The notes below the pieces were generated by a model that was given only the letters and a program-made list of their open reading frames with translations, did not search any database and was not told the origin of the DNA. Positions 18,148-64,000 of a stretch of DNA of 64,000 nucleotides are shown piece by piece (the first letter of the stretch is position 1; every line of letters begins with the position of its first letter). The DNA comes from Siderastrea radians (Eukaryota > Cnidaria > Anthozoa > Scleractinia > Rhizangiidae), in the NCBI GenBank assembly GCA_964017195.1, contig OZ024895.1:16410034-16474033 (forward strand), in the 5' to 3' direction. Position numbers and translations under genes: made by a program.

Positions 18148-18167
18148 ATCATCTACATTCCCCAAAA
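18148..18167. promoter_or_regulatory. Left host/element junction with half attachment site
   Basis: Identity to the other units starts at ATCATC (18148-18153), followed by TACATTCCCCAAAA, the right half of the site found whole at every internal junction. To its left is host ATC microsatellite instead of the left arm. The shared ATCATC is what a recombinase crossover would leave. Confidence 0.6.
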
Positions 18168-18321
18168 GTAATGATAGCTACATTTGAGGTTAAAACACCG
18201 ACGTTTTGCAATTGCTTTTTTGTTCTTAGTATCGCTGGGCCATTTTTTACGTGAGGAAACTTTCAAATTTGAATTTTAATTGACGCGGCACGAGCAAACA
18301 TCTCTTTTTCAAAAACTTAGT

Positions 18322-18870
18322 GTTCCGTGCGTTTTTGTTTTTTGTTCCTTTAATTGCATTAGGAACAAACTAGGAACACACAATAAAGGAACTTTATTTG
18401 CTCAATAGGAACAAAAGTGAGCAAATTCGGAACAAACTGGTCCGTTAGCAGCAAACTGGAACACAAAGTTCCTTTTTATTTTAGTCAAAAGGAACAACTG
18501 GTTCCTCTTTTATCCTTTTAGGAACAAAAGGTCCTCTTTAAAATAGTCCGGATTTCCCTTCCTGTTCCTTTTGAAGTGATTGGGGAACAAATGTTCCCAA
18601 TCTTATTTCTCGCTTAACACAGTTAGGAACAAATTGTTCCTATTTACTGGTATATCCACTGCTGTTGGGAACGCCTTGTTCCTTTTCGGTTTAAATTGTT
18701 CCTATTCATGCCCCACAGGAACAGAATTGTTCCTAATCAAGGTGTTCTTATTTTCTCAAGACGAGTCTTATGTTCCGCACATAAATGGGAACAGGTTCCG
18801 AATTTGTTGATAAAGGAACAAGCGTTCCATTTTGCGCAAAGTGTAAACAGGAAAAGGGAACAAAAGTTCC
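18322..18870. promoter_or_regulatory. GGAAC/GTTCC iteron cluster, copy 1
   Basis: Same content and spacing as the copy 3 cluster, which is described at 40005-40553. It is complete here even though the leftmost 400 bp before the unit boundary are absent. Confidence 0.6.
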
Positions 18871-19217
18871 TATTTAACGGTGGTTATCTGAAACTACTGT
18901 CTATCTCTTCCTCGAGACAAATTTCTCAAAACATATCCTTCAAAGAACAGGTTAAGTACGAGACTTGCCCGCTACAAGCTTAATCTCGTTAGGGCTGGCC
19001 CGCGCAAGTTCAGGCTTGTGTCTTTGTTCCTTTTGATTGATTGTGTACCAAATACGGACAAGGGAACAATGGGGCAAGGGGCAAGAATGATCAAGTGTGG
19101 GCAGAGAATAGTTAACAAATATCTCATTGGCGAATAGGATGATCTCTTGAGGACCCTTTTGCTAGTATAAGTGCGTGCATTCTTTAGAAAAATATCTATT
19201 TCAAGCTAACGCTTAAG

Positions 19218-20983
19218 ATGAACAAACGAGGCAAGGATGTCAACTGGTCAAAGTTAGCAAATGCATCGCCTAAACCAAAGAGACTTCACTTAGAAGAGGA
19301 TGACTGTGATGGTCTTTTTCACTGTCCAGTACAAATTTGTGACCACGATGGATTCACTACGCAAAGAGGCTGTAGAAAACACGTAAAGAACAAACACAGT
19401 TGGTACTATTACTTCGACGAGAAGCCAGACAGTGCTCAAATCGATTCGCTTCATGTCGATCAAAACAACAAATGCGAAGCCATTGAGCAGAAGATTGCAC
19501 CGCGTAAAAGCAGGGCAATTGCCTCTTTTGATCCTACAAACAACATTGCCAAAAACTTTTTTCGTGGTTAACTGGCAGTGGTGGGGGCTGTAAAAGTGAT
19601 CGACAAGCACAACAGATCGTAAGCAAGTGCTTAAAGTTTCTCAAATTTTGTTGCGAAGACGAAGAGGAGCTGACGTTTGACATAGTGGACTTTAGTTTAT
19701 GTTCACCGAATCTCCTTTTCAAGTTTGTTGATACGATGCAGGATGATTGGAACCTGGGACACGCGGGACGCATAGGCTACTTGGATGCCATTGCAGAATT
19801 AGTGGATTATCGAAAAGTGAACGGAGCATCGGAATCAGTATTGAGAGGACTGGCTTCAACAGAAATTTACTTGAAAAAGGTGCGCAAAACCGTTTCCAAA
19901 ATGATGCGGTTGCAGTGGACCAGTGAACTCGACATCGATGCCTTAGAAGCCAAGGGACACTGGGCCACTCTGGAAGAACTGTTGGAAGTCGTGGGGCGCT
20001 ACTTGCCGCGCTACGAGAGCGTGCTGAAATCGTGCAAGGAGAAACCGGGTGCCGTTTTGCCCATAGATTTATCTTTTGCTACCAAATTTTTGGCCGTCTA
20101 TTTATTTATCAAGGTCAAGGGCTCGCGTCCCATGACATATCAGTACTTAACCGTGGAAATGGTGAACAAAGCCAAGACTAACGGTGGATTCATAGACCAG
20201 AAAATGTTCAAAACGGCTGGCAAATATGGCTTCGACTCTCTTTACCTGACTGAGACGAGCATGCAAGTGCTGGATGGCTACATCAGCCACATTCGCCCCC
20301 TACTCAGACCGACCTGCGACTTTGTATTAGTGACAAGAAATGGAGGGCAGCACAACAAGCTTGGAGAGCTAATGAGTAAACTGGTCTTCGATGCAACGGG
20401 CAAATACGTTCACCCGACTCGCTATCGACAGATTGTGGAGACCGCGAGTTCTAGGCAGCTGAGCAGCGTGGCGCAGAGCACAATCTCCGAGGACCAGAAA
20501 CATAGCTCTGTTGTTGCAAGGGTTCACTATCAGAAGCAGCGATCGCGTGAGGTGGCGAGCAAAGCACACGAATATTTGGAACGACTGCACGGGGAAAAGG
20601 GATCAGAGATAGAACTAGACGTGCGCTCGAGGCTTTCAGGAAATTCTGCATCTTCTGAAGATCAAAATGCTAGCAAAACGGATACTTCCTCTAACGACGA
20701 GGGAGAAACGATCGCAGAAACACCACCCGAGCGTCTTTCAGCTGTCCCGAGACTAAAGCGGGAAAATGCATTTATAGTGACAGATTGCCCGGCGAGAAAA
20801 AAGAGTCTGATGTTTACCCCTGCAGAAGACGGTTACCTAAAAGCAGGCATCGAGCGACACGGCTATGGTCAATGGAAAGCGATTCTCAGGGATCCCGAAT
20901 TTCGTTTTCAAGAGGGAAGGACGGCCAACTCACTGCTGAGCCGTGCAGCGCGAAGATTCGCATCACTTTCTAAGTTATCCTAG
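19218..20983 (+). pseudogene. Tyrosine recombinase gene, copy 1, frameshifted
   Basis: The zinc-finger-bearing first 115 or so codons (19218-19571) read normally. A T6 instead of T7 tract then shifts the frame and a stop follows within three codons. The rest, including the catalytic domain and Myb domain, is open in the next frame up to 20983. A valine replaces the alanine found in copies 3-5 five residues before the catalytic tyrosine. An internal ATG at 19685 could in principle start a finger-less protein, but there is no evidence that it does. Copy 2 has the same one-base loss. Confidence 0.85.
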
Positions 20984-21151
20984 AACTTTACATTTACCCC
21001 AGAATGAAAAGACACCCTTGAAATAGAAATAACGACATAGGCAAGCAGCAATACGATTCAGTACATGACAAGCAACATTTTATTGTTGTTTTAAGAAGAA
21101 ATAAATTACTGAAATTATGAATATATGAAATTCATATATTTGGAATGAAAA

Positions 21152-21391
21152 AAGAAATGTAAAGAAGATCCTCGCGGTTATTAACGCAACTAATATGCAG
21201 TTGCGAAAAGAAAAAGCCTGAGAAAATCAGGCTTGCCGGGATTCGAACCCTGACCTCTGCGATACCGGTGCAGCGCTCGAACCAATTGAGCTAAAGAGCC
21301 AACTGGGAGCTGGTCATCAAATTGGTTTGCTGCGAACCAATTTAATGACCAGCTCCCAGTTGGCTCTTTAGCTCAATTGGTTCGAGCGCTG
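21152..21391. repeat. tRNA-Thr-like palindrome, copy 1, truncated
   Basis: The left arm is complete, but the right arm stops at GCGCTG where the 967-bp deletion begins. The apex differs from other copies by one base (TTTGCTGCG against TTTGGTGCG). Confidence 0.75.
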
Positions 21392-22919
21392 AATCGCCGT
21401 CGCTCTCGTCCTCTGGACTCCCCTCGTCTGACGTGTCGACCGCTGGCATCTCTTTGGCTAAAAGCACCGGTAGTGACGCTGATCGAATCTCTGCCTTCTC
21501 TTCTTCCCGCAGCACACCTTCGGCAAAGGTCGATTCCTCCTCCTGCGTATCCTCTTCGCTATCGCCTTCCGATTCGTCCTCGTTCTCAGCCTCTTTCGCC
21601 TTTTGCGCTGCCCACAGGACGCAATCCATGGGATGCGTTCTCATCCAGTTGGACGCCTTCTTTTTTGGCCGGGGCAGGCTTCTGAAGGTGTAGGTTCTTA
21701 GCCTCCGCTCCATCGCAGGCTGATCGGCGGGACCGAACTCAAGCTTTCTTTGTGAGGTGATCAGCATGGGGCAGCGGTTGATGAATGCCCGGGCACTTTG
21801 ATATTTCACGTCATGGGCGGCGTACCCACCCTGAGTAAGGATCTTCCAATCGTCGATGTCAAGAGTGTGCTCGGTGGCTTCGTCAATGAATATTACTTCG
21901 GTGAAGGGCGTTATCATTGATTTATTGAACGCTTTCTGCTTTGTCACCGTGGCCACGTTGCCGTGGTGGATGAGGCCTAGAATGGGCATGAACAAACTCG
22001 TCTTTCCACTGTTGGCATCGCCTACCAAACACGGCACCTTGTCTTTGTGCTGTTTCTTGTTGTAGAGAAGCAGTTTTAAGAAATCGTCGCAGAACTTCGC
22101 CACCTCCTGCGGGCTTAGGCTGTTCTCTAAGACTTCTCGAAAGTACTTTGGGCAAGGATCTCTTGCGGAGTCGAAGGAACAAAATGCTCGCGGCGAGATC
22201 TTTCCCACCTGTTGCTCCTCAATGGCACCGTCAACAAAGTCCCGCCGGCTGATGGACCAACAGCGGCAGTCTTTTACCTCAATGAGGTCGTAGTTGATTA
22301 TCAACGGCGAAAAAAGTTCACAGAATGGATCAGATAGCAGATCGATCACTCTCTTCATCTCGCGAAGAAGTCTTGCCTTGAAGAACTCGTTGGTGGCAAG
22401 GGTGTTGACGAAAGCTCTTGCCTCGCATTTATACGAATACGTGTACCTGGCTTGGTCATTCTTCTTGTAGACTTTGCCGCGATAGCTTGCATAGCCCAGT
22501 TTTCCCATGGCGATCGCTATGTCGTTAACGAGGATCGCAAGTTTATCTGCCGACAGCATCTTATCCTCATCGCACGCCATGGCTAGCTGACTGGTGGAAG
22601 CTTGAGACGTCGTCGTGCTGGACTCAAAGCCAAATTTGTCTAATTGTAGCTTAGCTGCGGTCAGAAGTTCGACTGCACTCAGTAAGGACGTGTGAAATTT
22701 CGGGTTAACCAGGGTCACTCTCACCACATTTTCAGTTCCACAATTGTCCAACTCTTGGGTGCATAAGCCATCATGGCCCACCACCTTCCTCGCTTCGTCT
22801 TGGTAACAGTGTTTGAAGGACGAGCTAACGAGGTCTTGCATGAAAGGATTTTTGTGATCTTTCAACACTTTGTAGAGTTCTGCTGTGGCTGGGGATTCTT
22901 TTCCCTCTTGAAACTGTAC
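21342..22919 (-). pseudogene. SF3 helicase main exon, copy 1, C-terminally truncated
   Basis: The helicase core is intact (Walker A GDANSGKT, Walker B EVIFIDEA, motif C MLITSQ). After the acidic stretch the frame runs across the deletion into tRNA-like sequence and ends after 15 unrelated residues. About 277 C-terminal residues are lost, including the charged linker, the nuclear-localisation-like basic clusters and the PCNA-motif-like tail. Whether the truncated product works is unknown. Confidence 0.8.
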
Positions 22920-23503
22920 CTGAAGGATATCAAATTGAAGCATTTTACCAAACACGGTTCTACGTTTCCTTTTTCTTTACTGACTGACCGCTTGTATCGT
23001 TTATTATTATCATCATTACTATTATTAACAGCAATCAGGGTGCACCAAAACCCATGTCCGATTGTCCACGACAGGTAGAAATTCCGTTTGGACATGCAAA
23101 CCTTTGACATGACTTTTCCGTGGGACAAGCACATTTTCAATCAGGAAATAACAGAAACAATTGAAAACTGAGTTCATCATTCCCAGTCACAAAATTCAAG
23201 TTGATAATAGCAGTGTCACAAGAAAAAAGTACAGTCTTCGTTGTTAGGTTTTCTTTCAAAGCAACTGAGAAGAGAAAACGTCTTAAATGCTAGCAAAAAA
23301 TTAGATGAATCAAGAGAGGGTCGTTAATTGCCTGTTTGTTTTTGATTGTCGAGTTTCGAGCAAACCGTTTTGGACAAAACCTCTTTGGCTTTGGCTTTTC
23401 CTTACTCCGATTCTTCATTTTTTTCAGTTCTCAATTTTGACTAACATGTTCACGGCTAAGGGAATGCTTGGGTTATCGAAAAGTAAGAAAATAATTTAAT
23501 TAC

Positions 23504-24110
23504 CTGTGTTGCTGTGACTTCCAGTCCTGAATTCAACAGGGCTTTGTGTACAGAAATTGGACTGGCGGGCGCACCGTTTACTGTAGTCAACGCCACCCAG
23601 TATGCGATGGCAGGGCAGAGTGATTTGTTTACGTTCGTTAAGTTTCCTTCAAGCCATTGTTGGGAAATAGAGCTCGGAATTTCATCGCCAGAACTGCTCT
23701 CCTCTTCTGTGTTCTCGTTGATACTTCCACTTTTTTTCTCTTGGCTTGCTATGGCGCTAAAGAAAAATGCTACGTTGTGGATACCTGGAGTATTAGAAAA
23801 ATAAAATGCGTCGAATTTTTGCACTCAAATGTTCTTTGAAATCTCATCTGAAATCGGCGTATTGCAACAAATACTAACCTGATATTGCACGGTCGCACAA
23901 ATCTCGTTTTCCGCAAACAGTTGCCCAAGCCTTTGGCAAGGCCTTATCTTTGACTTTGCAAACACATTTAGCGCTGATAATGCTACACCTTCCGCTTATT
24001 ACTGGGGTAAGGTAGCACAAGGCCGTACTCTTTATACCCTCACTGTTGAGCTGTCGACATGGTTGTCTTGTTCGCTGCATTCTTCTTTCGTAGCGCAAAT
24101 GTTGTGGCAT
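23504..24110 (-). CDS. SF3 helicase gene exons 1 and 2, copy 1
   Basis: Exon 1 spans 24110-23879 and exon 2 23784-23504, with the same splice signals as in copy 3. The upstream TATA element is at 24120-24129. The exons are unaffected by the downstream deletion, so the locus could still be transcribed. Confidence 0.5.
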
Positions 24111-24864
24111 GGGTGCGGTGTTTATATAGTGGATCAGTGCTGTGAAATTTTGACGAATAAATTTGAAAGTTTAGGCTTTTGTTGGCTATGTTTTCGACGT
24201 GCTGATGAATAACTGTGAAAGATAATTCATTAGTTTGTTTGTCATGTTTTGAAGTCAGATTTGTTGACGAGGACGTGTCGGAAATGATGTAACTATGAAA
24301 TGAGCGTTATAAAGGGCGTTCCTTTTTTGCACGTTTCTTTAAAGTATGAGTCGCTGTTGTTAGCGCAGGACAATAAGGACGCTCTGATGTAATTTAGAGG
24401 GCAAGTTCAACGCCAAAAATGCAATCGCTTCATTATGATAGTGCTCCCCAGGAAAAATCGAAGCAAAAAACCTACCCTTTTTGGTGAAATACAATAACGA
24501 TAGGATCATTAGACTTGTTCTCTGACTTGTTTTCTCGGACGCTCAAACAATGCAATCAAAACTGTCATTCAATCCAGGTAGCAGCCGGCGCCTTTTCTCA
24601 AACGATGGTTCAAAGGAACGACCGAAAAGGTGTGATGCATTTAGTGTCACCATTTAGGACCAAACTTGGTAATGAAATGCAAGAAATGATTGTCTTTCTT
24701 GTGCCTTTTCATAACGGACCTTTTTTAAAAGAAGTTTCTGTAACGCTCAAGGTGGAACTTAAACTCAACTGAAGCTTCATGTCTCTGGGAAATCTGTAAA
24801 AAACAATTGTCTAAAACGAAAACAAAAAATGTATGAAAATGTATGAACTCGAAGCTCCATGGCT

Positions 24865-25289
24865 CCACAAAATCCGTAAAATCCATCTCTTCCGTGTGTG
24901 GTGAAAAGTTCTTTGAAATGGAAAAGAAATGCATTAAGCATTGACTGCTGGTGAAATTCATAGACAGTAAAACTCTTAAAAAGAGTAGCGGAAAAGACGG
25001 ATTTCACTGATTACCCGGAGACATGAATGTATAAGAAGATAACTTGCAGTCCTGACTGACTGCTAACTGAAAAAGACTCTTAAAAGAGTAGCGGAAAATA
25101 CGGAGTTCACAGATTTCACGGAGACATGAATGTTCAATAAGGTAACTTGCAGTCCTGACTGACTGCTAACTGAAAAAGACTCTTAAAAGAGTAGCGGAAA
25201 ATACGGATTTCACGGATTTCACGGAAATATGAATATTTTTTATTACTTTGATATAATACTTCTCTTTTTTACTGTAAGTATCTTAATAC

Positions 25290-25325
<36 letters not shown>

Positions 25326-25750
25326 GTATTAAGATACTTACAGTAAAGAAGAGAAGTATTATATCAAAGTAATAAATTTCCGTGAAATCCGTGAAATCCG
25401 TATTTTCCGCTACTCTTTTAAGAGTCTTTTTCAGTTAGCAGTCAGTCAGGACTGCAAGTTACCTTATTGAACATTCATGTCTCCGTGAAATCCGTGAACT
25501 CCGTATTTTCCGCTACTCTTTTAAGAGTCCTTTTCAGTTAGCAGTCAGTCAGGACTGCAAGTTATCTTCTTATACATTCATGTCTCCGGGTAATCAGTGA
25601 AATCCGTCTTTTCCGCTACTCTTTTTAAGAGTTTTACCGTGTATGAATTTCACTAGCAGTCAATGCTTAATGCATTTCTTTTCCATTTCGATCAAAGATC
25701 TTTTCCCCACACACGGAAAAGATGGATTCTACGGATTTAACGGTGAACCA
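24865..25750. repeat. AT-centred long palindrome, copy 1
   Basis: Same arms as in copy 3, but the central (AT)n is 2 bp shorter. Subrepeats carrying GACTCTTAAAAGAGTAGCGG and CGGATTTCA words are present in both arms. Confidence 0.85.
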
Positions 25751-25950
25751 CCAAAGATCGTGATCAACCTTTGCTTTAATACAATTTTTGCAATCCAACA
25801 CTGATTGTATAAACTCAACGGATATAACGGATATAACGGATATGCCGGAGACAAACTCACGTAGATATCATGAAACAAAATCGCTCTGGGTAAACCCTTG
25901 TTTGCTGTTATAAATTTAAGGCTACAGTATAGGAACAAGCGTGCCTTTCC

Positions 25951-26256
25951 ATGGCCGTTCCCCTTACGAGGAACGCTTTTGCGGAAAATCGTCCAGATTT
26001 ATTTGTAGTTCTTAGCAAAAGATCTGAGAATGTGCTCTTTAGCTTTTTCCTGCATAAGACTACCAACAGATATAATTTTAGAAAGATTTTTGCAGTACTT
26101 AGTGTTATTTTAAGGCTTCAAAAAAGGGGAACTGAATTTTTGGGAAACGATCATCTACATTCCCCAAAAGTAATGATAGCTACATTTGAGGTTAAAACAC
26201 CGACGTTTTGCAATTGCTTTTTTGTTCTTAGTATCGCTGGGCCATTTTTTACGTGA
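25951..26256 (+). CDS. Possible 101-aa protein spanning the copy 1/2 junction
   Basis: The ATG lies in a favourable context (CCATGG) downstream of a TTATAAAT box. The frame crosses the unit boundary, so it exists only when units are joined. I recognise no domain. See the copy 3/4 instance at 48604-48909. Confidence 0.2.
   Translation: MAVPLTRNAFAENRPDLFVVLSKRSENVLFSFFLHKTTNRYNFRKIFAVLSVILRLQKRGTEFLGNDHLHSPKVMIATFEVKTPTFCNCFFVLSIAGPFFT
26137..26169. promoter_or_regulatory. Attachment-like site at copy 1/2 junction
   Basis: Left arm TTTTTGGGAA (26137-26146) and right arm TTCCCCAAAA (26160-26169) are inverted repeats with one mismatch. They flank a 13-bp centre ACGATCATCTACA. The copy boundary defined by the host junction falls at ATCATC (26150-26155), inside this centre. 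Short inverted arms around a small spacer are the usual form of a tyrosine-recombinase crossover site. Confidence 0.55.
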
Positions 26257-26323
26257 GGAAACTTTCAAATTTGAATTTTAATTGACGCGGCACGAGCAAA
26301 CATCTCTTTTTCAAAAACTTAGT

Positions 26324-26872
26324 GTTCCGTGCGTTTTTGTTTTTTGTTCCTTTAATTGCATTAGGAACAAACTAGGAACACACAATAAAGGAACTTTATT
26401 TGCTCAATAGGAACAAAAGTGAGCAAATTCGGAACAAACTGGTCCGTTAGCAGCAAACTGGAACACAAAGTTCCTTTTTATTTTAGTCAAAAGGAACAAC
26501 TGGTTCCTCTTTTATCCTTTTAGGAACAAAAGGTCCTCTTTAAAATAGTCCGGATTTCCCTTCCTGTTCCTTTTGAAGTGATTGGGGAACAAATGTTCCC
26601 AATCTTATTTCTCGCTTAACACAGTTAGGAACAAATTGTTCCTATTTACTGGTATATCCACTGCTGTTGGGAACGCCTTGTTCCTTTTCGGTTTAAATTG
26701 TTCCTATTCATGCCCCACAGGAACAGAATTGTTCCTAATCAAGGTGTTCTTATTTTCTCAAGACGAGTCTTATGTTCCGCACATAAATGGGAACAGGTTC
26801 CGAATTTGTTGATAAAGGAACAAGCGTTCCATTTTGCGCAAAGTGTAAACAGGAAAAGGGAACAAAAGTTCC
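26324..26872. promoter_or_regulatory. GGAAC/GTTCC iteron cluster, copy 2
   Basis: I saw no difference from the copy 1 cluster. The palindromic pairs are retained upstream of a dead recombinase gene. Confidence 0.6.
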
Positions 26873-27674
26873 TATTTAACGGTGGTTATCTGAAACTACT
26901 GTCTATCTCTTCCTCGAGACAAATTTCTCAAAACATATCCTTCAAAGAACAGGTTAAGTACGAGACTTGCCCGCTACAAGCTTAATCTCGTTAGGGCTGG
27001 CCCGCGCAAGTTCAGGCTTGTGTCTTTGTTCCTTTTGATTGATTGTGTACCAAATACGGACAAGGGAACAATGGGGCAAGGGGCAAGAATGATCAAGTGT
27101 GGGCAGAGAATAGTTAACAAATATCTCATTGGCGAATAGGATGATCTCTTGAGGACCCTTTTGCTAGTATAAGTGCGTGCATTCTTTAGAAAAATATCTA
27201 TTTCAAGCTAACGCTTAAGATGAACAAACGAGGCAAGGATGTCAACTGGTCAAAGTTAGCAAATGCATCGCCTAAACCAAAGAGACTTCACTTAGAAGAG
27301 GATGACTGTGATGGTCTTTTTCACTGTCCAGTACAAATTTGTGACCACGATGGATTCACTACGCAAAGAGGCTGTAGAAAACACGTAAAGAACAAACACA
27401 GTTGGTACTATTACTTCGACGAGAAGCCAGACAGTGCTCAAATCGATTCGCTTCATGTCGATCAAAACAACAAATGCGAAGCCATTGAGCAGAAGATTGC
27501 ACCGCGTAAAAGCAGGGCAATTGCCTCTTTTGATCCTACAAACAACATTGCCAAAAACTTTTTTCGTGGTTAACTGGCAGTGGTGGGGGCTGTTAAAGTG
27601 ATCGACAAGCACAACAGATCGTAAGCAAGTGCTTAAAGTTTCTCAAATTTTGTTGCGAAGACGAAGAGGAGCTG

Positions 27675-27685
27675 ACGTTTGACAT
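27675..27685. repeat. Target-site duplication of the LINE (left)
   Basis: ACGTTTGACAT occurs at 27675-27685 and again at 32385-32395, flanking the LINE, and only once in every uninterrupted copy. It abuts the poly(T) run, which is the LINE's poly(A) tail on the other strand. Confidence 0.85.
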
Positions 27686-27840
27686 TTTTTTTTTTTTTTT
27701 TTTTTTTTATTAATTTTTTTCTTTATTTTTACTTTTCAACACAATACACTTAACAATACGCGAAAAGAAAAATACAAAGGATAAATGAATAAAAAATACA
27801 GAGGTAACACTGCGATACACGTTTTACATAACTATTGTAA

Positions 27841-31587: not shown

Positions 31588-31888
31588 TTTACAAACGATA
31601 AATTGGTCATCCTATATTGGAAAGCCTAGATCGCAAAATTTGCTTGCCATGTGTATCGCTAACAAAACATACAAACATAAACTACAGAAACTACTAACAG
31701 TTTACCTCCAACGAGGTGTGAACTACTCGTAGACGTTGCCGTTCGGAGTTCCAACAACTTCGGGATGAATATTGAGCTTCTGTTGAGCTTCGACAAAACA
31801 ATAGACTTCTGTTCTTTATCTTTTTGCATTTCGTCAGCTTCTAGTCCTTCAAGTTTATCGCAGACTTTGGTTTGCAGGTATCACGTTC

Positions 31889-32384: not shown

Positions 32385-32395
32385 ACGTTTGACAT
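32385..32395. repeat. Target-site duplication of the LINE (right)
   Basis: The second copy of ACGTTTGACAT; host unit sequence (the recombinase frame) resumes immediately after it. Confidence 0.85.
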
Positions 32396-34218: not shown

Positions 34219-34225
34219 AAATAAA

Positions 34226-47940: not shown

Positions 47941-47978
<38 letters not shown>

Positions 47979-48909: not shown

Positions 48910-48976
48910 GGAAACTTTCAAATTTGAATTTTAATTGACGCGGCACGAGCAAACATCTCTTTTTCAAAAACTTAGT

Positions 48977-49525: not shown

Positions 49526-49872
49526 TATTTAACGGTGGTTATCTGAAACTACTGTCTATCTCTTCCTAGAGACAAATTTCTCAAAACATATCCTTCAAAG
49601 AACAGGTTAAGTACGAGACTTGCCCGCTACAAGCTTAATCTCGTTAGGGCTGGCCCGCGCAAGTTCAGGCTTGTGTCTTTGTTCCTTTTGATTGATTGTG
49701 TACCAAATACGGACAAGGGAACAATGGGGCAAGGGGCAAGAATGATCAAGTGTGGGCAGAGAATAGTTAACAAATATCTCATTGGCGAATAGGATGATCT
49801 CTTGAGGACCCTTTTGCTAGTATAAGTGCGTGCATTCTTTAGAAAAATATCTATTTCAAGCTAACGCTTAAG

Positions 49873-51639: not shown

Positions 51640-51807
51640 AACTTTACATTTACCCCAGAATGAAAAGACACCCTTGAAATAGAAATAACGACATAGGCAA
51701 GCAGCAATACGATTCAGTACATGACAAGCAACATTTTATTGTTGTTTTAAGAAGAAATAAATTACTGAAATTATGAATATATGAAATTCATATATTTGGA
51801 ATGAAAA

Positions 51808-52162
51808 AAGAAATGTAAAGAAGATCCTCGCGGTTATTAACGCAACTAATATGCAGTTGCGAAAAGAAAAAGCCTGAGAAAATCAGGCTTGCCGGGATTC
51901 GAACCCTGACCTCTGCGATACCGGTGCAGCGCTCGAACCAATTGAGCTAAAGAGCCAACTGGGAGCTGGTCATCAAATTGGTTTGGTGCGAACCAATTTA
52001 ATGACCAGCTCCCAGTTGGCTCTTTAGCTCAATTGGTTCGAGCGCTGCACCGGTATCGCAGAGGTCAGGGTTCGAATCCCGGCAAGCCTGATTTTCTCAG
52101 GCTTTCTTTCCGCAACTGCATAAGTTGCGTTAATAACTGCGAGGATCTTCTTTACGTTTCTT
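51808..52162. repeat. tRNA-Thr-like palindrome, copy 4
   Basis: Complete; flanking AAATAAATTACTG direct repeats are at 51755-51767 and 52163-52175. Confidence 0.8.
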
Positions 52163-52169
52163 AAATAAA

Positions 52170-54542: not shown

Positions 54543-55126
54543 CTGAAGGATATCAAATTGAAGCATTTTACCAAACACGGTTCTACGTTTCCTTTTTCTT
54601 TACTGACTGACCGCTTGTATCGTTTATTATTATCATCATTACTATTATTAACAGCAATCAGGGTGCACCAAAACCCATGTCCGATTGTCCACGACAGGTA
54701 GAAATTCCGTTTGGACATGCAAACCTTTGACATGACTTTTCCGTGGGACAAGCACATTTTCAATCAGGAAATAACAGAAACAATTGAAAACTGAGTTCAT
54801 CATTCCCAGTCACAAAATTCAAGTTGATAATAGCAGTGTCACAAGAAAAAAGTACAGTCTTCGTTGTTAGGTTTTCTTTCAAAGCAACTGAGAAGAGAAA
54901 ACGTCTTAAATGCTAGCAAAAAATTAGATGAATCAAGAGAGGGTCGTTAATTGCCTGTTTGTTTTTGATTGTCGAGTTTCGAGCAAACCGTTTTGGACAA
55001 AACCTCTTTGGCTTTGGCTTTTCCTTACTCCGATTCTTCATTTTTTTCAGTTCTCAATTTTGACTAACATGTTCACGGCTAAGGGAATGCTTGGGTTATC
55101 GAAAAGTAAGAAAATAATTTAATTAC

Positions 55127-55733
55127 CTGTGTTGCTGTGACTTCCAGTCCTGAATTCAACAGGGCTTTGTGTACAGAAATTGGACTGGCGGGCGCACCGT
55201 TTACTGTAGTCAACGCCACCCAGTATGCGATGGCAGGGCAGAGTGATTTGTTTACGTTCGTTAAGTTTCCTTCAAGCCATTGTTGGGAAATAGAGCTCGG
55301 AATTTCATCGCCAGAACTGCTCTCCTCTTCTGTGTTCTCGTTGATACTTCCACTTTTTTTCTCTTGGCTTGCTATGGCGCTAAAGAAAAATGCTACGTTG
55401 TGGATACCTGGAGTATTAGAAAAATAAAATGCGTCGAATTTTTGCACTCAAATGTTCTTTGAAATCTCATCTGAAATCGGCGTATTGCAACAAATACTAA
55501 CCTGATATTGCACGGTCGCACAAATCTCGTTTTCCGCAAACAGTTGCCCAAGCCTTTGGCAAGGCCTTATCTTTGACTTTGCAAACACATTTAGCGCTGA
55601 TAATGCTACACCTTCCGCTTATTACTGGGGTAAGGTAGCACAAGGCCGTACTCTTTATACCCTCACTGTTGAGCTGTCGACATGGTTGTCTTGTTCGCTG
55701 CATTCTTCTTTCGTAGCGCAAATGTTGTGGCAT
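55127..55733 (-). CDS. SF3 helicase gene exons 1 and 2, copy 4
   Basis: Exon 1 is 55733-55502 and exon 2 55407-55127. Splice signals are as in copy 3, and the TATA element is at 55743-55752. Exon 2 has the majority residue N where copy 3 has K. Confidence 0.5.
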
Positions 55734-56487
55734 GGGTGCGGTGTTTATATAGTGGATCAGTGCTGTGAAATTTTGACGAATAAATTTGAAAGTTTAGGCT
55801 TTTGTTGGCTATGTTTTCGACGTGCTGATGAATAACTGTGAAAGATAATTCATTAGTTTGTTTGTCATGTTTTGAAGTCAGATTTGTTGACGAGGACGTG
55901 TCGGAAATGATGTAACTATGAAATGAGCGTTATAAAGGGCGTTCCTTTTTTGCACGTTTCTTTAAAGTATGAGTCGCTGTTGTTAGCGCAGGACAATAAG
56001 GACGCTCTGATGTAATTTAGAGGGCAAGTTCAACGCCAAAAATGCAATCGCTTCATTATGATAGTGCTCCCCAGGAAAAATCGAAGCAAAAAACCTACCC
56101 TTTTTGGTGAAATACAATAACGATAGGATCATTAGACTTGTTCTCTGACTTGTTTTCTCGGACGCTCAAACAATGCAATCAAAACTGTCATTCAATCCAG
56201 GTAGCAGCCGGCGCCTTTTCTCAAACGATGGTTCAAAGGAACGACCGAAAAGGTGTGATGCATTTAGTGTCACCATTTAGGACCAAACTTGGTAATGAAA
56301 TGCAAGAAATGATTGTCTTTCTTGTGCCTTTTCATAACGGACCTTTTTTAAAAGAAGTTTCTGTAACGCTCAAGGTGGAACTTAAACTCAACTGAAGCTT
56401 CATGTCTCTGGGAAATCTGTAAAAAACAATTGTCTAAAACGAAAACAAAAAATGTATGAAAATGTATGAACTCGAAGCTCCATGGCT

Positions 56488-56912
56488 CCACAAAATCCGT
56501 AAAATCCATCTCTTCCGTGTGTGGTGAAAAGTTCTTTGAAATGGAAAAGAAATGCATTAAGCATTGACTGCTGGTGAAATTCATAGACAGTAAAACTCTT
56601 AAAAAGAGTAGCGGAAAAGACGGATTTCACTGATTACCCGGAGACATGAATGTATAAGAAGATAACTTGCAGTCCTGACTGACTGCTAACTGAAAAAGAC
56701 TCTTAAAAGAGTAGCGGAAAATACGGAGTTCACAGATTTCACGGAGACATGAATGTTCAATAAGGTAACTTGCAGTCCTGACTGACTGCTAACTGAAAAA
56801 GACTCTTAAAAGAGTAGCGGAAAATACGGATTTCACGGATTTCACGGAAATATGAATATTTTTTATTACTTTGATATAATACTTCTCTTTTTTACTGTAA
56901 GTATCTTAATAC

Positions 56913-56950
<38 letters not shown>

Positions 56951-57374
56951 GTATTAAGATACTTACAGTAAAGAAGAGAAGTATTATATCAAAGTAATAA
57001 ATTTCCGTGAAATCCGTGAAATCCGTATTTTCCGCTACTCTTTTAAGAGTCTTTTTCAGTTAGCAGTCAGTCAGGACTGCAAGTTACCTTATTGAACATT
57101 CATGTCTCCGTGAAATCCGTGAACTCCGTATTTTCCGCTACTCTTTTAAGAGTCCTTTTCAGTTAGCAGTCAGTCAGGACTGCAAGTTATCTTCTTATAC
57201 ATTCATGTCTCCGGGTAATCAGTGAAATCCGTCTTTTCCGCTACTCTTTTTAAGAGTTTTACCGTGTATGAATTTCACTAGCAGTCAATGCTTAATGCAT
57301 TTCTTTTCCATTTCGATCAAAGATCTTTTCCCCACACACGGAAAAGATGGATTCTACGGATTTAACGGTGAACC
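56488..57374. repeat. AT-centred long palindrome, copy 4
   Basis: Complete. It differs from copy 3 by one base beside the centre (ATGAATATT against ACGAATATT). Confidence 0.85.
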
Positions 57375-57575
57375 ACCAAAGATCGTGATCAACCTTTGCT
57401 TTAATACAATTTTTGCAATCCAACACTGATTGTATAAACTCAACGGATATAACGGATATAACGGATATGCCGGAGACAAACTCACGTAGATATCATGAAA
57501 CAAAATCGCTCTGGGTAAACCCTTGTTTGCTGTTATAAATTTAAGGCTACAGTATAGGAACAAGCGTGCCTTTCC

Positions 57576-57881
57576 ATGGCCGTTCCCCTTACGAGGAACG
57601 CTTTTGCGGAAAATCGTCCAGATTTATTTGTAGTTCTTAGCAAAAGATCTGAGAATGTGCTCTTTAGCTTTTTCCTGCATAAGACTACCAACAGATATAA
57701 TTTTAGAAAGATTTTTGCAGTACTTAGTGTTATTTTAAGGCTTCAAAAAAGGGGAACTGAATTTTTGGGAAACGATCATCTACATTCCCCAAAAGTAATG
57801 ATAGCTACATTTGAGGTTAAAACACCGACGTTTTGCAATTGCTTTTTTGTTCTTAGTATCGCTGGGCCATTTTTTACGTGA
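57576..57881 (+). CDS. Possible 101-aa protein spanning the copy 4/5 junction
   Basis: Same as the instance at 48604-48909. Confidence 0.2.
   Translation: MAVPLTRNAFAENRPDLFVVLSKRSENVLFSFFLHKTTNRYNFRKIFAVLSVILRLQKRGTEFLGNDHLHSPKVMIATFEVKTPTFCNCFFVLSIAGPFFT
57762..57794. promoter_or_regulatory. Attachment-like site at copy 4/5 junction
   Basis: Arms at 57762-57771 and 57785-57794, ATCATC at 57775-57780; identical to the other internal junctions. Confidence 0.55.
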
Positions 57882-57948
57882 GGAAACTTTCAAATTTGAA
57901 TTTTAATTGACGCGGCACGAGCAAACATCTCTTTTTCAAAAACTTAGT

Positions 57949-58497
57949 GTTCCGTGCGTTTTTGTTTTTTGTTCCTTTAATTGCATTAGGAACAAACTAG
58001 GAACACACAATAAAGGAACTTTATTTGCTCAATAGGAACAAAAGTGAGCAAATTCGGAACAAACTGGTCCGTTAGCAGCAAACTGGAACACAAAGTTCCT
58101 TTTTATTTTAGTCAAAAGGAACAACTGGTTCCTCTTTTATCCTTTTAGGAACAAAAGGTCCTCTTTAAAATAGTCCGGATTTCCCTTCCTGTTCCTTTTG
58201 AAGTGATTGGGGAACAAATGTTCCCAATCTTATTTCTCGCTTAACACAGTTAGGAACAAATTGTTCCTATTTACTGGTATATCCACTGCTGTTGGGAACG
58301 CCTTGTTCCTTTTCGGTTTAAATTGTTCCTATTCATGCCCCACAGGAACAGAATTGTTCCTAATCAAGGTGTTCTTATTTTCTCAAGACGAGTCTTATGT
58401 TCCGCACATAAATGGGAACAGGTTCCGAATTTGTTGATAAAGGAACAAGCGTTCCATTTTGCGCAAAGTGTAAACAGGAAAAGGGAACAAAAGTTCC
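57949..58497. promoter_or_regulatory. GGAAC/GTTCC iteron cluster, copy 5
   Basis: Unchanged relative to copies 3 and 4. Confidence 0.6.
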
Positions 58498-58844
58498 TAT
58501 TTAACGGTGGTTATCTGAAACTACTGTCTATCTCTTCCTAGAGACAAATTTCTCAAAACATATCCTTCAAAGAACAGGTTAAGTACGAGACTTGCCCGCT
58601 ACAAGCTTAATCTCGTTAGGGCTGGCCCGCGCAAGTTCAGGCTTGTGTCTTTGTTCCTTTTGATTGATTGTGTACCAAATACGGACAAGGGAACAATGGG
58701 GCAAGGGGCAAGAATGATCAAGTGTGGGCAGAGAATAGTTAACAAATATCTCATTGGCGAATAGGATGATCTCTTGAGGACCCTTTTGCTAGTATAAGTG
58801 CGTGCATTCTTTAGAAAAATATCTATTTCAAGCTAACGCTTAAG

Positions 58845-60611
58845 ATGAACAAACGAGGCAAGGATGTCAACTGGTCAAAGTTAGCAAATGCATCGCCTAA
58901 ACCAAAGAGACTTCACTTAGAAGAGGATGACTGTGATGGTCTTTTTCACTGTCCAGTACAAATTTGTGACCACGATGGATTCACTACGCAAAGAGGCTGT
59001 AGAAAACACGTAAAGAACAAACACAGTTGGTACTATTACTTCGACGAGAAGCCAGACAGTGCTCAAATCGATTCGCTTCATGTCGATCAAAACAACAAAT
59101 GCGAAGCCATTGAGCAGAAGATTGCACCGCGTAAAAGCAGGGCAATTGCCTCTTTTGATCCTACAAACAACATTGCCAAAAACTTTTTTTCGTGGTTAAC
59201 TGGCAGTGGTGGGGGCTGTAAAAGTGATCGACAAGCACAACAGATCGTAAGCAAGTGCTTAAAGTTTCTCAAATTTTGTTGCGAAGACGAAGAGGAGCTG
59301 ACGTTTGACATAGTGGACTTTAGTTTATGTTCACCGAATCTCCTTTTCAAGTTTGTTGATACGATGCAGGATGATTGGAACCTGGGACACGCGGGACGCA
59401 TAGGCTACTTGGATGCCATTGCAGAATTAGTGGATTATCGAAAAGTGAACGGAGCATCGGAATCAGTATTGAGAGGACTGGCTTCAACAGAAATTTACTT
59501 GAAAAAGGTGCGCAAAACCGTTTCCAAAATGATGCGGTTGCAGTGGACCAGTGAACTCGACATCGATGCCTTAGAAGCCAAGGGACACTGGGCCACTCTG
59601 GAAGAACTGTTGGAAGTCGTGGGGCGCTACTTGCCGCGCTACGAGAGCGTGCTGAAATCGTGCAAGGAGAAACCGGGTGCCGTTTTGCCCATAGATTTAT
59701 CTTTTGCTACCAAATTTTTGGCCGTCTATTTATTTATCAAGGTCAAGGGCTCGCGTCCCATGACATATCAGTACTTAACCGTGGAAATGGTGAACAAAGC
59801 CAAGACTAACGGTGGATTCATAGACCAGAAAATGTTCAAAACGGCTGGCAAATATGGCTTCGACTCTCTTTACCTGACTGAGACGAGCATGCAAGTGCTG
59901 GATGGCTACATCAGCCACATTCGCCCCCTACTCAGACCGACCTGCGACTTTGTATTAGTGACAAGAAATGGAGGGCAGCACAACAAGCTTGGAGAGCTAA
60001 TGAGTAAACTGGTCTTCGATGCAACGGGCAAATACGTTCACCCGACTCGCTATCGACAGATTGTGGAGACCGCGAGTTCTAGGCAGCTGAGCAGCGTGGC
60101 GCAGAGCACAATCTCCGAGGACCAGAAACATAGCTCTGTTGCTGCAAGGGTTCACTATCAGAAGCAGCGATCGCGTGAGGTGGCGAGCAAAGCACACGAA
60201 TATTTGGAACGACTGCACGGGGAAAAGGGATCAGAGATAGAACTAGACGTGCGCTCGAGGCTTTCAGGAAATTCTGCATCTTCTGAAGATCAAAATGCTA
60301 GCAAAACGGATACTTCCTCTAACGACGAGGGAGAAACGATCGCAGAAACACCACCCGAGCGTCTTTCAGCTGTCCCGAGACTAAAGCGGGAAAATGCATT
60401 TATAGTGACAGATTGCCCGGCGAGAAAAAAGAGTCTGATGTTTACCCCTGCAGAAGACGGTTACCTAAAAGCAGGCATCGAGCGACACGGCTATGGTCAA
60501 TGGAAAGCGATTCTCAGGGATCCCGAATTTCGTTTTCAAGAGGGAAGGACGGCCAACTCACTGCTGAGCCGTGCAGCGCGAAGATTCGCATCACTTTCTA
60601 AGTTATCCTAG
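58845..60611 (+). CDS. C2H2 finger - tyrosine recombinase - Myb protein, copy 5
   Basis: Third intact 588-residue gene, matching copies 3 and 4 by inspection, with alanine near the active tyrosine. The TATAAG box is at 58793-58798. Confidence 0.85.
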   Translation: MNKRGKDVNWSKLANASPKPKRLHLEEDDCDGLFHCPVQICDHDGFTTQRGCRKHVKNKHSWYYYFDEKPDSAQIDSLHVDQNNKCEAIEQKIAPRKSRAIASFDPTNNIAKNFFSWLTGSGGGCKSDRQAQQIVSKCLKFLKFCCEDEEELTFDIVDFSLCSPNLLFKFVDTMQDDWNLGHAGRIGYLDAIAELVDYRKVNGASESVLRGLASTEIYLKKVRKTVSKMMRLQWTSELDIDALEAKGHWATLEELLEVVGRYLPRYESVLKSCKEKPGAVLPIDLSFATKFLAVYLFIKVKGSRPMTYQYLTVEMVNKAKTNGGFIDQKMFKTAGKYGFDSLYLTETSMQVLDGYISHIRPLLRPTCDFVLVTRNGGQHNKLGELMSKLVFDATGKYVHPTRYRQIVETASSRQLSSVAQSTISEDQKHSSVAARVHYQKQRSREVASKAHEYLERLHGEKGSEIELDVRSRLSGNSASSEDQNASKTDTSSNDEGETIAETPPERLSAVPRLKRENAFIVTDCPARKKSLMFTPAEDGYLKAGIERHGYGQWKAILRDPEFRFQEGRTANSLLSRAARRFASLSKLS

Positions 60612-60779
60612 AACTTTACATTTACCCCAGAATGAAAAGACACCCTTGAAATAGAAATAACGACATAGGCAAGCAGCAATACGATTCAGTACATGACAAG
60701 CAACATTTTATTGTTGTTTTAAGAAGAAATAAATTACTGAAATTATGAATATATGAAATTCATATATTTGGAATGAAAA

Positions 60780-61134
60780 AAGAAATGTAAAGAAGATCCT
60801 CGCGGTTATTAACGCAACTAATATGCAGTTGCGAAAAGAAAAAGCCTGAGAAAATCAGGCTTGCCGGGATTCGAACCCTGACCTCTGCGATACCGGTGCA
60901 GCGCTCGAACCAATTGAGCTAAAGAGCCAACTGGGAGCTGGTCATCAAATTGGTTTGGTGCGAACCAATTTAATGACCAGCTCCCAGTTGGCTCTTTAGC
61001 TCAATTGGTTCGAGCGCTGCACCGGTATCGCAGAGGTCAGGGTTCGAATCCCGGCAAGCCTGATTTTCTCAGGCTTTCTTTCCGCAACTGCATAAGTTGC
61101 GTTAATAACTGCGAGGATCTTCTTTACGTTTCTT
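60780..61134. repeat. tRNA-Thr-like palindrome, copy 5
   Basis: Complete; same apex and arms as copies 2-4. Confidence 0.8.
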
Positions 61135-61141
61135 AAATAAA

Positions 61142-63514
61142 TTACTGTTGACTCGAGAAATACTTGTTGATTTTGTTGCTTTGACAATGTTTTTTCGTAC
61201 CTCGCTGGCTCGAGGAGGCACGCTTGCGCTTACTGGCTTCGGTGGTTGTGGTGCGGCCTGAACGTGCACTCGGATGCGACTGTCTAGCGCTTGAGCTTGG
61301 AACAGGCGTTACAAAAGTACTCTGCTCTTCTTCTTCTCCTCCTTCTTCTTCTTCGGCATCATCACCGTCACCGTTCCGATTGGCAAGTGGCAGTCTCTCC
61401 GCAACGCTCGTGACTAGGTGCTGTTGGTGCTGGTCCAGAAGGCCGAGAAGCGTGCACACCCTCTTCCGTTCCGCCACGGCCTCGGCAGTTCCAAAAGTCC
61501 CCAGAGACATGTGATGGTCCCCGAGTTTGCCTGTCAAGTGCTTAATGTAGGCCTTCAACGTGGAACGCTCCGACGAGTCGTCACTAGCCTGGTACCGTTC
61601 ACAGCATCGCTGTAAATCCTTCTCGGTGGATCTCAACCAAGTACCCTGAAACGCTTCTCTGGCAGCCTCTCGACGAGCCTGTTCTTGGGCTGCTACTCGT
61701 GCTTGGTCATACCGCTCGAGATCCCTCGCAATTGGACTGGGGGTGGGATCGTTGAGGTCGTCCGGTAACAGGCTCAAGTTCACGTTCGACACGCCCCTGG
61801 AGCGAAGGAAGTCCTCCCTCTGTCTGCGTCGTTTCGCTCGTGACCTTTCTTCTTCCCTCTTTTTGTGCTCTTCCGTCCTCAGCATCTGTGCGAGGTGTCT
61901 GTGGCGCAGGCAACCCGGCTGTGTCTTCTCAAGGAGATCTCGTAAATGCGCCACACGATCTGCCTGTGGGGATGTGGACGGACCTGAATCGCCGTCGCTC
62001 TCGTCCTCTGGACTCCCCTCGTCTGACGTGTCGACCGCTGGCATCTCTTTGGCTAAAAGCACCGGTAGTGACGCTGATCGAATCTCTGCCTTCTCTTCTT
62101 CCCGCAGCACACCTTCGGCAAAGGTCGATTCCTCCTCCTGCGTATCCTCTTCGCTATCGCCTTCCGATTCGTCCTCGTTCTCAGCCTCTTTCGCCTTTTG
62201 CGCTGCCCACAGGACGCAATCCATGGGATGCGTTCTCATCCAGTTGGACGCCTTCTTTTTTGGCCGGGGCAGGCTTCTGAAGGTGTAGGTTCTTAGCCTC
62301 CGCTCCATCGCAGGCTGATCGGCGGGACCGAACTCAAGCTTTCTTTGTGAGGTGATCAGCATGGGGCAGCGGTTGATGAATGCCCGGGCACTTTGATATT
62401 TCACGTCATGGGCGGCGTACCCACCCTGAGTAAGGATCTTCCAATCGTCGATGTCAAGAGTGTGCTCGGTGGCTTCGTCAATGAATATTACTTCGGTGAA
62501 GGGCGTTATCATTGATTTATTGAACGCTTTCTGCTTTGTCACCGTGGCCACGTTGCCGTGGTGGATGAGGCCTAGAATGGGCATGAACAAACTCGTCTTT
62601 CCACTGTTGGCATCGCCTACCAAACACGGCACCTTGTCTTTGTGCTGTTTCTTGTTGTAGAGAAGCAGTTTTAAGAAATCGTCGCAGAACTTCGCCACCT
62701 CCTGCGGGCTTAGGCTGTTCTCTAAGACTTCTCGAAAGTACTTTGGGCAAGGATCTCTTGCGGAGTCGAAGGAACAAAATGCTCGCGGCGAGATCTTTCC
62801 CACCTGTTGCTCCTCAATGGCACCGTCAACAAAGTCCCGCCGGCTGATGGACCAACAGCGGCAGTCTTTTACCTCAATGAGGTCGTAGTTGATTATCAAC
62901 GGCGAAAAAAGTTCACAGAATGGATCAGATAGCAGATCGATCACTCTCTTCATCTCGCGAAGAAGTCTTGCCTTGAAGAACTCGTTGGTGGCAAGGGTGT
63001 TGACGAAAGCTCTTGCCTCGCATTTATACGAATACGTGTACCTGGCTTGGTCATTCTTCTTGTAGACTTTGCCGCGATAGCTTGCATAGCCCAGTTTTCC
63101 CATGGCGATCGCTATGTCGTTAACGAGGATCGCAAGTTTATCTGCCGACAGCATCTTATCCTCATCGCACGCCATGGCTAGCTGACTGGTGGAAGCTTGA
63201 GACGTCGTCGTGCTGGACTCAAAGCCAAATTTGTCTAATTGTAGCTTAGCTGCGGTCAGAAGTTCGACTGCACTCAGTAAGGACGTGTGAAATTTCGGGT
63301 TAACCAGGGTCACTCTCACCACATTTTCAGTTCCACAATTGTCCAACTCTTGGGTGCATAAGCCATCATGGCCCACCACCTTCCTCGCTTCGTCTTGGTA
63401 ACAGTGTTTGAAGGACGAGCTAACGAGGTCTTGCATGAAAGGATTTTTGTGATCTTTCAACACTTTGTAGAGTTCTGCTGTGGCTGGGGATTCTTTTCCC
63501 TCTTGAAACTGTAC
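61142..63514 (-). CDS. SF3 helicase main exon, copy 5
   Basis: Complete main exon, same protein as copies 2-4. Its two upstream exons are predicted to begin beyond 64000, so the gene is partial in this window. Confidence 0.8.
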   Translation of the reverse strand, partial: VQFQEGKESPATAELYKVLKDHKNPFMQDLVSSSFKHCYQDEARKVVGHDGLCTQELDNCGTENVVRVTLVNPKFHTSLLSAVELLTAAKLQLDKFGFESSTTTSQASTSQLAMACDEDKMLSADKLAILVNDIAIAMGKLGYASYRGKVYKKNDQARYTYSYKCEARAFVNTLATNEFFKARLLREMKRVIDLLSDPFCELFSPLIINYDLIEVKDCRCWSISRRDFVDGAIEEQQVGKISPRAFCSFDSARDPCPKYFREVLENSLSPQEVAKFCDDFLKLLLYNKKQHKDKVPCLVGDANSGKTSLFMPILGLIHHGNVATVTKQKAFNKSMITPFTEVIFIDEATEHTLDIDDWKILTQGGYAAHDVKYQSARAFINRCPMLITSQRKLEFGPADQPAMERRLRTYTFRSLPRPKKKASNWMRTHPMDCVLWAAQKAKEAENEDESEGDSEEDTQEEESTFAEGVLREEEKAEIRSASLPVLLAKEMPAVDTSDEGSPEDESDGDSGPSTSPQADRVAHLRDLLEKTQPGCLRHRHLAQMLRTEEHKKREEERSRAKRRRQREDFLRSRGVSNVNLSLLPDDLNDPTPSPIARDLERYDQARVAAQEQARREAAREAFQGTWLRSTEKDLQRCCERYQASDDSSERSTLKAYIKHLTGKLGDHHMSLGTFGTAEAVAERKRVCTLLGLLDQHQQHLVTSVAERLPLANRNGDGDDAEEEEGGEEEEQSTFVTPVPSSSARQSHPSARSGRTTTTEASKRKRASSSQRGTKKHCQSNKINKYFSSQQ

Positions 63515-64000
63515 CTGAAGGATATCAAATTGAAGCATTTTACCAAACACGGTTCTACGTTTCCTTTTTCTTTACTGACTGACCGCTTGTATCGTTTATT
63601 ATTATCATCATTACTATTATTAACAGCAATCAGGGTGCACCAAAACCCATGTCCGATTGTCCACGACAGGTAGAAATTCCGTTTGGACATGCAAACCTTT
63701 GACATGACTTTTCCGTGGGACAAGCACATTTTCAATCAGGAAATAACAGAAACAATTGAAAACTGAGTTCATCATTCCCAGTCACAAAATTCAAGTTGAT
63801 AATAGCAGTGTCACAAGAAAAAAGTACAGTCTTCGTTGTTAGGTTTTCTTTCAAAGCAACTGAGAAGAGAAAACGTCTTAAATGCTAGCAAAAAATTAGA
63901 TGAATCAAGAGAGGGTCGTTAATTGCCTGTTTGTTTTTGATTGTCGAGTTTCGAGCAAACCGTTTTGGACAAAACCTCTTTGGCTTTGGCTTTTCCTTAC

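What the first reader, a model, noticed from the sequence alone, without database searches (positions are those of the whole stretch)
18148..64000. Tandem array of an unfamiliar 9-kb element pairing a tyrosine recombinase with an SF3 helicase
The unit repeats head to tail at least five times with almost no divergence. It encodes both an integrase-type tyrosine recombinase and a replicative SF3 helicase, but no visible capsid, polymerase, HUH nickase or DDE transposase. Classical Cryptons carry essentially the recombinase; SF3 helicases belong to replicating virus-like genomes. The pair suggests a self-replicating, integrating circular element (capsidless virus-like or a new Crypton-related class). 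I do not know of a described family with this exact content.
Basis: partly seen in the sequence, partly recalled or inferred. Interest (0 to 1): 0.95.

Follow-up and report, generated by a model that had tools for sequence, protein, structure and literature searches.

The report
Integrating circle element in coral genome
A stony-coral genome carries many copies of a small DNA element that pairs a site-specific recombinase with a virus-type replication helicase and appears to insert as a circle, often in head-to-tail arrays, into simple DNA repeats that match a short sequence of its own.

Summary
In a stony-coral genome, probably Porites, the array has seven head-to-tail copies of an 8,972-bp unit, two damaged. 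Each unit carries a single-exon tyrosine recombinase (YR) and a convergent SF3 helicase, really a three-exon gene of about 961 aa. The pair is a family: 37 of 56 typed helicase places in the genome have a YR within 6 kb, all 37 convergent, over several diverged subfamilies (capped lists). Eight scattered copies and the array end within a few bases of the same two points, defining a YR-type site: inverted arms around an 8-bp spacer. All nine subfamily-1 sites examined have an (ATC)n tract within 60 bp, matching that spacer (ATCATC). The few host junctions seen for two other spacers lie in TTCC or CATCC repeats. Tandem junctions are exact copies of the joined site. Best reading: a capsid-less integrating circular element; the YR integrates circles by spacer homology and the helicase probably amplifies them from a palindromic or iteron-rich origin. 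Integration is well supported; replication is inferred. It is not a CryptonA by profile, and no capsid gene was seen. Ten literature searches found no match; Repbase could not be searched.

The parts
18148..64000 (+). Head-to-tail array of the element, copies 1-5 of 7 (copy 5 cut by the window end; array ends at G000:C9:16494733)
18148..26149 (+). Copy 1, damaged: about 965 bp deleted at 21391 (helicase truncated), YR frame broken near its start
26150..39830 (+). Copy 2, YR gene interrupted by a non-LTR retrotransposon
27686..32384 (-). Non-LTR retrotransposon inserted in copy 2 (endonuclease + RT + zf-RVT; 11-bp target duplication); not part of the element
39831..48802 (+). Copy 3, both genes open
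48803..57774 (+). Copy 4, both genes open; used as the reference unit
57775..64000 (+). Copy 5, cut by the window end; both genes open when read on into the flanking locus
48790..48823 (+). att-like recombination site at the copy 3/4 junction: left arm 48790-48802, spacer ATCATCTA 48803-48810, right arm 48811-48823; same joined site at 26150, 39831 and 57775
48977..49722 (+). Iteron zone upstream of the YR gene: 31 GGAAC/GTTCC words in 761 bp (simulated Markov-1 mean 1.8, maximum 8 in 1,000)
49873..51639 (+). Tyrosine recombinase gene, single exon, 588 aa: C2H2-like N-terminus (read by eye), YR fold, C-terminal Myb/TRF-like domain
51808..52162 (.). Palindrome between the 3' ends of the two genes holding two divergent tRNA-like sequences; not found in four elements of other subfamilies
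52170..54542 (-). SF3 helicase gene, exon 3 (Walker A/B, D5/Rep/E1-type fold)
55127..55407 (-). SF3 helicase gene, exon 2
55502..55733 (-). SF3 helicase gene, exon 1
56493..57363 (.). Long inverted repeat with AT-rich core and TCCGTGAAAT-type repeats; candidate replication origin (inference)
   Evidence: inverted repeat in the C11 subfamily, sharing a 31-bp stretch

Best explanation
The unit is a two-gene, capsid-less, integrating circular DNA element of corals. Step 1 (inferred): its tyrosine recombinase joins the two ends of an integrated copy and releases a circle carrying one site of two inverted arms around an 8-bp spacer. Step 2 (inferred): the SF3 helicase, acting at the AT-rich palindrome with its short repeats or at the GGAAC iterons, opens the circle for the host replication machinery, raising copy number or making multimers. 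Step 3 (supported by junction structure): the recombinase inserts the circle into a chromosomal simple repeat that shares the spacer sequence, leaving the short core at both ends. Step 4 (junction structure shown, route inferred): further circles or a multimer insert at the same site, giving head-to-tail arrays whose internal junctions are joined att sites.
For: Eight scattered copies and the array begin within a few bases of unit position 847 and end within a few bases of 852 of the circular map (alignment starts 840-848, ends 851-858; the left side of C12a instead runs on into another copy), so integrated ends are one circular permutation sharing a 6-bp core; the core is exact except at C9b's left end and the right ends of C4 and C14, which match 5 of 6. 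Arms pair 10, 12 and 13 of 13 in three subfamilies. 9 of 9 subfamily-1 sites have an ATC tract of 12 bp or more within 60 bp, 9 of 9 with the ATC strand in element orientation, against 38 of 12,621 control positions. Spacer ATCTTATA sits in (TTCC)n on both sides of the C11 array; spacer ATCCTATA: of 4 fetched ends, 2 are host junctions in CATCC/TTCC repeats and 2 are joined sites. 41 perfect joined sites of the ATNNTATA type genome-wide, reversed-pattern control 0, plus 7 for subfamily 1. Joined flanks of the C7 copy match three places continuously at 92, 88 and 84% (the third over 67-599 of 600). Linkage 37 of 56, all convergent. Folds. R314, H409, R412, H439 and Y448 are invariant or at least 90% conserved in 40 sequences. 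Only these two genes are recognisably conserved between subfamilies 1 and 3.
Confidence: 0.75

Rival explanations
1. A degenerate or satellite virus: the integrated form of a virus-like genome that lost its capsid genes or is packaged in trans by a helper, in the way virophages, Polinton-like viruses or phage satellites do.
For: SF3 helicase fold shared with D5, AAV Rep, papilloma E1 and the SaPI5 primase-helicase; Polinton-like viruses can hold both YR and S3H (passages of PMC4642659).
Against: No capsid, packaging or polymerase gene was seen: Pfam was run on the long ORFs only, and only the two genes are conserved between subfamilies 1 and 3. Four scans of IMG/VR confirmed no relative.
Confidence: 0.12
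2. A Crypton-type DNA transposon that has picked up a helicase gene as cargo; the helicase is not a replicase and movement is cut-and-paste.
For: YR, no terminal inverted repeats at the integrated ends, short terminal direct repeats and a proposed circular intermediate, as described for Cryptons (passages of PMC3212892).
Against: Animal Cryptons are described there with no terminal repeats found and no C-terminal domain. DUF3504 scored 150 places in this genome (of 966 candidates) and none overlaps the 73 listed YR places, compared by eye; the YR profile does not match the ORFs of the eight sampled loci (best E 0.22). Helicase motifs stay invariant across 70 sequences, arguing against idle cargo.
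Confidence: 0.12
3. The array is a host tandem duplication made by unequal crossing-over; the elements themselves move rarely.
For: Near-identity of copies fits recent local amplification.
Against: The array ends and its six internal junctions fall at the 6-bp core that also ends the scattered copies; 41 further joined sites of related type occur in the genome.
Confidence: 0.08
4. The array is an assembly artefact of a single circular or repeated sequence.
For: Very high identity between copies.
Against: Copies carry private marks (a deletion, a retrotransposon insertion, single-base differences) and the array has two host flanks.
Confidence: 0.03

Closest known systems
Crypton DNA transposons (CryptonA/I/F/S)
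   Same: Tyrosine recombinase element; short terminal direct repeats in the fungal, oomycete and diatom groups; circular intermediate proposed (PMC3212892, passages)
   Different: Has an SF3 helicase gene, a C-terminal Myb domain, inverted-arm att sites, simple-repeat targets and tandem arrays; YR not matched by DUF3504 or Phage_integrase models. The word helicase occurs 0 times in that paper's main text
Polinton-like viruses and virophages with YR and S3H
   Same: Both enzyme types are found in this group of eukaryotic elements (PMC4642659, PMC12220804, passages)
   Different: [quoted passage not shown] this unit is about 9 kb with two recognised genes and no capsid gene seen
Prokaryotic integrative elements (thaumarchaeal iMGE; SaPI-type islands)
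   Same: YR integrase with an S3H replication protein in some thaumarchaeal elements; arrays by re-use of one site (PMC6563490 passages); best VIA-align row is the SaPI5 primase-helicase. That SaPIs pair integrase and att site is recalled
   Different: Animal host, Myb-bearing YR, no detected primase domain, simple-repeat target
Yeast 2-micron plasmid (recalled, not tested)
   Same: Eukaryotic circle with its own tyrosine recombinase
   Different: Flp inverts the plasmid and does not integrate it; no SF3 helicase

Membership tests
Tyrosine recombinase element | YR fold with R-H-R-Y type residues | tested here: met
   [not shown]
Tyrosine recombinase element | Recombination site of 11-13-bp inverted arms around a 6-8-bp segment | tested here: met
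   Three spacer types; definition from PMC3212892 passages. In subfamily 1 the arms are imperfect, 10 of 13
SF3 helicase | Walker A/B and SF3 AAA+ fold | tested here: met
   [not shown]
CryptonA/CryptonI | YR of the DUF3504-related type | tested here: not met
   No DUF3504 match listed at E up to 10 (HMMER filters apply) or in 40 members at 0.01; none of the 150 scored DUF3504 places overlaps the 73 listed YR places, by eye
CryptonA/CryptonI | No C-terminal domain and no terminal repeats (as described in PMC3212892) | tested here: not met
   C-terminal Myb domain in 40 of 40 members; terminal direct core
Crypton in the wide sense | YR grouping with Crypton YRs in a phylogeny | not tested
   No Repbase or curated Crypton YR set at hand
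Polinton-like virus / virophage | Major capsid, minor capsid and packaging ATPase genes | tested here: not met
   No further gene conserved between subfamilies 1 and 3; Pfam run on the long ORFs only
HUH/Rep element or parvovirus | HUH endonuclease domain | tested here: inconclusive
   Parvo_NS1 matched weakly (below its cut-off) over the helicase part only; about the first 140 residues of the model are poor, and exons 1-2 were not modelled
Integrative plasmid-like element | Autonomous replication of the circle | not testable with these tools
   Needs circle detection and a replication assay

The most novel reading that the evidence does not exclude
A new class of animal mobile DNA: a self-replicating, integrating plasmid that uses genomic microsatellites as its attachment sites, each lineage having a spacer matched to a particular simple repeat, and that accumulates as tandem arrays by repeated site-specific insertion.
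Probability: 0.4. Interest if true: 0.9.

Novelty: new variant of a known kind. Interest (0 to 1): 0.8.

Why it matters
Eukaryotic tyrosine-recombinase DNA elements are few and mechanistically obscure, and no terminal repeats had been found for animal Cryptons when they were surveyed (PMC3212892, passage). This family gives clean termini, att sites, targets and tandem junctions in many copies, several nearly identical and so apparently recent, so excision, circle formation and target choice become directly testable. The pairing with a virus-type replicative helicase suggests a plasmid-like lifestyle in an animal genome. Matching the spacer to a microsatellite would be a simple way to find plentiful landing sites.

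Tried and rejected
Considered that the long palindrome was a pair of fused terminal repeats of a linear element; rejected because scattered copies end elsewhere, near unit position 847/852. Considered that the tRNA-like palindrome was the attachment site; rejected for the same reason, and Rfam finds no tRNA-like match in the eight fetched stretches of four elements of other subfamilies; ARAGORN, run with the bacterial code, calls no tRNA in the window. Looked for virus relatives with four IMG/VR scans, two with single proteins and two with alignments: pattern matches in three of the four, no relative confirmed in any. PHROGs and NCBIfam gave no meaningful match. Sequence searches of the PDB gave nothing for the helicase alone, only chance-level matches for its profile, and for the YR profile only Myb/SANT-type chains. 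The second empty-site test was negative. Literature: ten searches (three of them returned no paper) listed no described cnidarian YR plus SF3 element; I saw listings, and passages only of PMC3212892, PMC4642659, PMC11071296, PMC12220804, PMC4981718 and PMC6563490. Most subscription papers and preprints are not in that library and Repbase was not available, so a family record elsewhere cannot be excluded. One protein search (of 3) and several other capped calls were left unused.

In one search the HMM search covered all ORFs of 100 aa or more of the eight loci, but the hhalign part used only the longest ORF of each locus, which is not always the recombinase. Absence of a family from the structural lists is not evidence that folds differ.
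Full report
WHAT IS THERE. The window is G000:C9:16410034-16474033 of an 805-Mb assembly with 439 contigs. The closest named proteins include Porites lobata and P. evermanni entries, so the host is a stony coral, probably Porites. From 18148 on, an 8,972-bp unit repeats head to tail. Joined sites occur at 26150, 39831, 48803 and 57775 in the window and at two more places beyond it, and the array ends at C9:16494733, giving seven copies. Copy 1 has a deletion of about 965 bp at 21391 and a broken YR frame near its start; copy 2 has its YR gene interrupted by a non-LTR retrotransposon with an 11-bp target duplication. In copies 3-7 the YR gene and the three helicase exons are open. Copies 3 and 4 differ at 4 of 8,972 positions, one of them in exon 2.

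NON-CODING PARTS. Upstream of the YR lies a zone with 31 GGAAC/GTTCC words in 761 bp, against 16 in the other 7,902 bp examined and a mean of 1.8, maximum 8, in 1,000 simulated Markov-1 sequences; a 43-bp stretch of it is shared with the C11 subfamily. Beyond the helicase lies a long inverted repeat with an AT-rich centre and TCCGTGAAAT-type repeats; the C11 subfamily has an inverted repeat that shares a 31-bp stretch with it. I take one or both as the origin or control region; this is inference. Between the genes subfamily 1 has a palindrome with two tRNA-like sequences (Rfam 31.7 bits), not found in eight fetched stretches from four elements of other subfamilies.

TERMINI. Eight scattered copies and the array were mapped to the circular unit. 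Alignments begin at unit position 840-848 and end at 851-858 (C12a's left side runs on into another copy), that is, at one point of the circle, with a 6-bp core ATCATC at each end (one left end and two right ends match 5 of 6). In the joined form the core is flanked by inverted arms (10 of 13 pairs). A second subfamily (array on C11, period about 9.65 kb) has arms pairing 12 of 13 around ATCTTATA, and a third type (joined sites seen on C6 and C5) 13 of 13 around ATCCTATA. This matches the general description of YR sites as 11-13-bp inverted repeats around 6-8 bp (PMC3212892, passage).

TARGETS. For subfamily 1, 9 of 9 sites have an ATC tract of at least 12 bp within 60 bp on the right, 4 of 8 on the left, and in 9 of 9 the ATC strand is in element orientation; 38 of 12,621 control positions pass the tract test. 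The controls are the window left of the array, the array's right flank and loci L001-L008, so not a random genome sample. For the C11 array both flanks are (TTCC)n. For the ATCCTATA type, of four fetched ends two are joined sites and two are host junctions, one in CATCC-type and one in TTCC-type repeats; I expected a TCC-bearing repeat from the spacer, but that expectation is not recorded in a call. In the C9/C1 subfamily both fetched copies lie in ATG/TGG repeats. The joined flanks of the C7 copy match three other places continuously (92, 88, 84%, the third over 67-599 of 600), as expected of paralogous empty sites; the same test for C9a found none.

FAMILY. In the whole genome, 56 helicase and 73 YR candidates were scored of 663 and 748 first-look candidates, giving 64 and 75 rows. 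Of the 56 helicase rows used, 37 have a YR within 6 kb and all 37 are convergent (7 of the 37 are the array); 19 helicase and 36 YR rows have no listed partner. At least part of that is the cap: the C11 array, unpaired in the lists, does have a helicase at 31-37% identity. Paired identities move together (YR 89-100 with helicase 85-100; YR 65-66 with 51-52; YR 68-69 with 48-54). Patterns find 41 exact joined sites of the ATNNTATA type, reversed-pattern control 0, and 7 of the subfamily-1 type; only a few of the 41 were inspected in sequence. In public proteins, 162 helicase and 847 YR relatives pass E 0.001; among the 120 listed of each, names include Porites, Oculina, Acropora, Montipora, Desmophyllum and Nematostella. 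Four contig lengths (2,264,954; 831,635; 81,048; 21,646) appear in both lists, which suggests linkage in other assemblies; I compared these by eye and did not fetch the contigs.

MECHANISM. The simplest account: the YR makes and integrates circles at a short site, choosing targets by homology with its spacer; the SF3 helicase amplifies the circle; repeated insertion at the same site, or insertion of multimers, builds arrays. Prokaryotic YR elements are reported to form arrays by re-using one site (PMC6563490, passage). Shown: termini, site structure, target association, junction structure, linkage. Inferred: excision, replication, origin, protein activity.

COMPARISON. Cryptons share the YR and the circular-intermediate idea, but animal Cryptons are described as having no C-terminal domain, with no terminal repeats found. 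DUF3504, the Crypton-derived YR domain, scored 150 places in this genome (of 966 candidates) and none overlaps the 73 listed YR places (overlap read by eye); the YR profile does not recognise ORFs of L001-L008 (best E 0.22). Polinton-like viruses may carry both enzymes but are defined by capsid genes. By mechanism the element works most like a prokaryotic integrative element, or a phage satellite without packaging genes; it is not claimed as a member of either.

VERDICT. A real, multi-copy family of integrating circular elements; several copies are 99.7-99.96% identical to the unit over long stretches, so activity looks recent. I rate it a new variant of a known kind (YR-integrated element), with a fair chance that it deserves a class of its own once its recombinase is placed in a tree.

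Noticed in passing
G000:C1:25224258-25241548; G000:C3:5029942-5039651; G000:C8:5483854-5500852: Regular joined att sites spaced only 4.8-5.8 kb apart, shorter than the 9-kb unit: possibly non-autonomous or reduced elements that still form arrays.
   Followed up: no
G000:C10:19515010-19519978: Helicase fragments repeated at about 1.3-kb spacing, perhaps a local rearranged derivative of the element.
   Followed up: no
G000:C4:20121368-20144114: Gene pairs of two different subfamilies lie about 10 kb apart.
   Followed up: partly
G000:C12:21453450-21462636: A copy preceded directly by the end of another, slightly diverged copy (97% over the joined site): a second, smaller tandem arrangement of subfamily 1.
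   Followed up: partly
window 51808-52162: Palindrome with two divergent tRNA-like sequences between the gene ends; found in subfamily 1 only so far; origin (inverted tRNA-derived SINE?) and role unknown.
   Followed up: partly
window 5608-7212: Reverse transcriptase ORF of another retroelement left of the array.
   Followed up: no
   Followed up: partly
YR residues about 540-598 (window 51460-51636): The C-terminal Myb domain of the recombinase is closest in the PDB to telomere-repeat-binding TRF proteins; it might help recognise simple repeats, untested.
   Followed up: no
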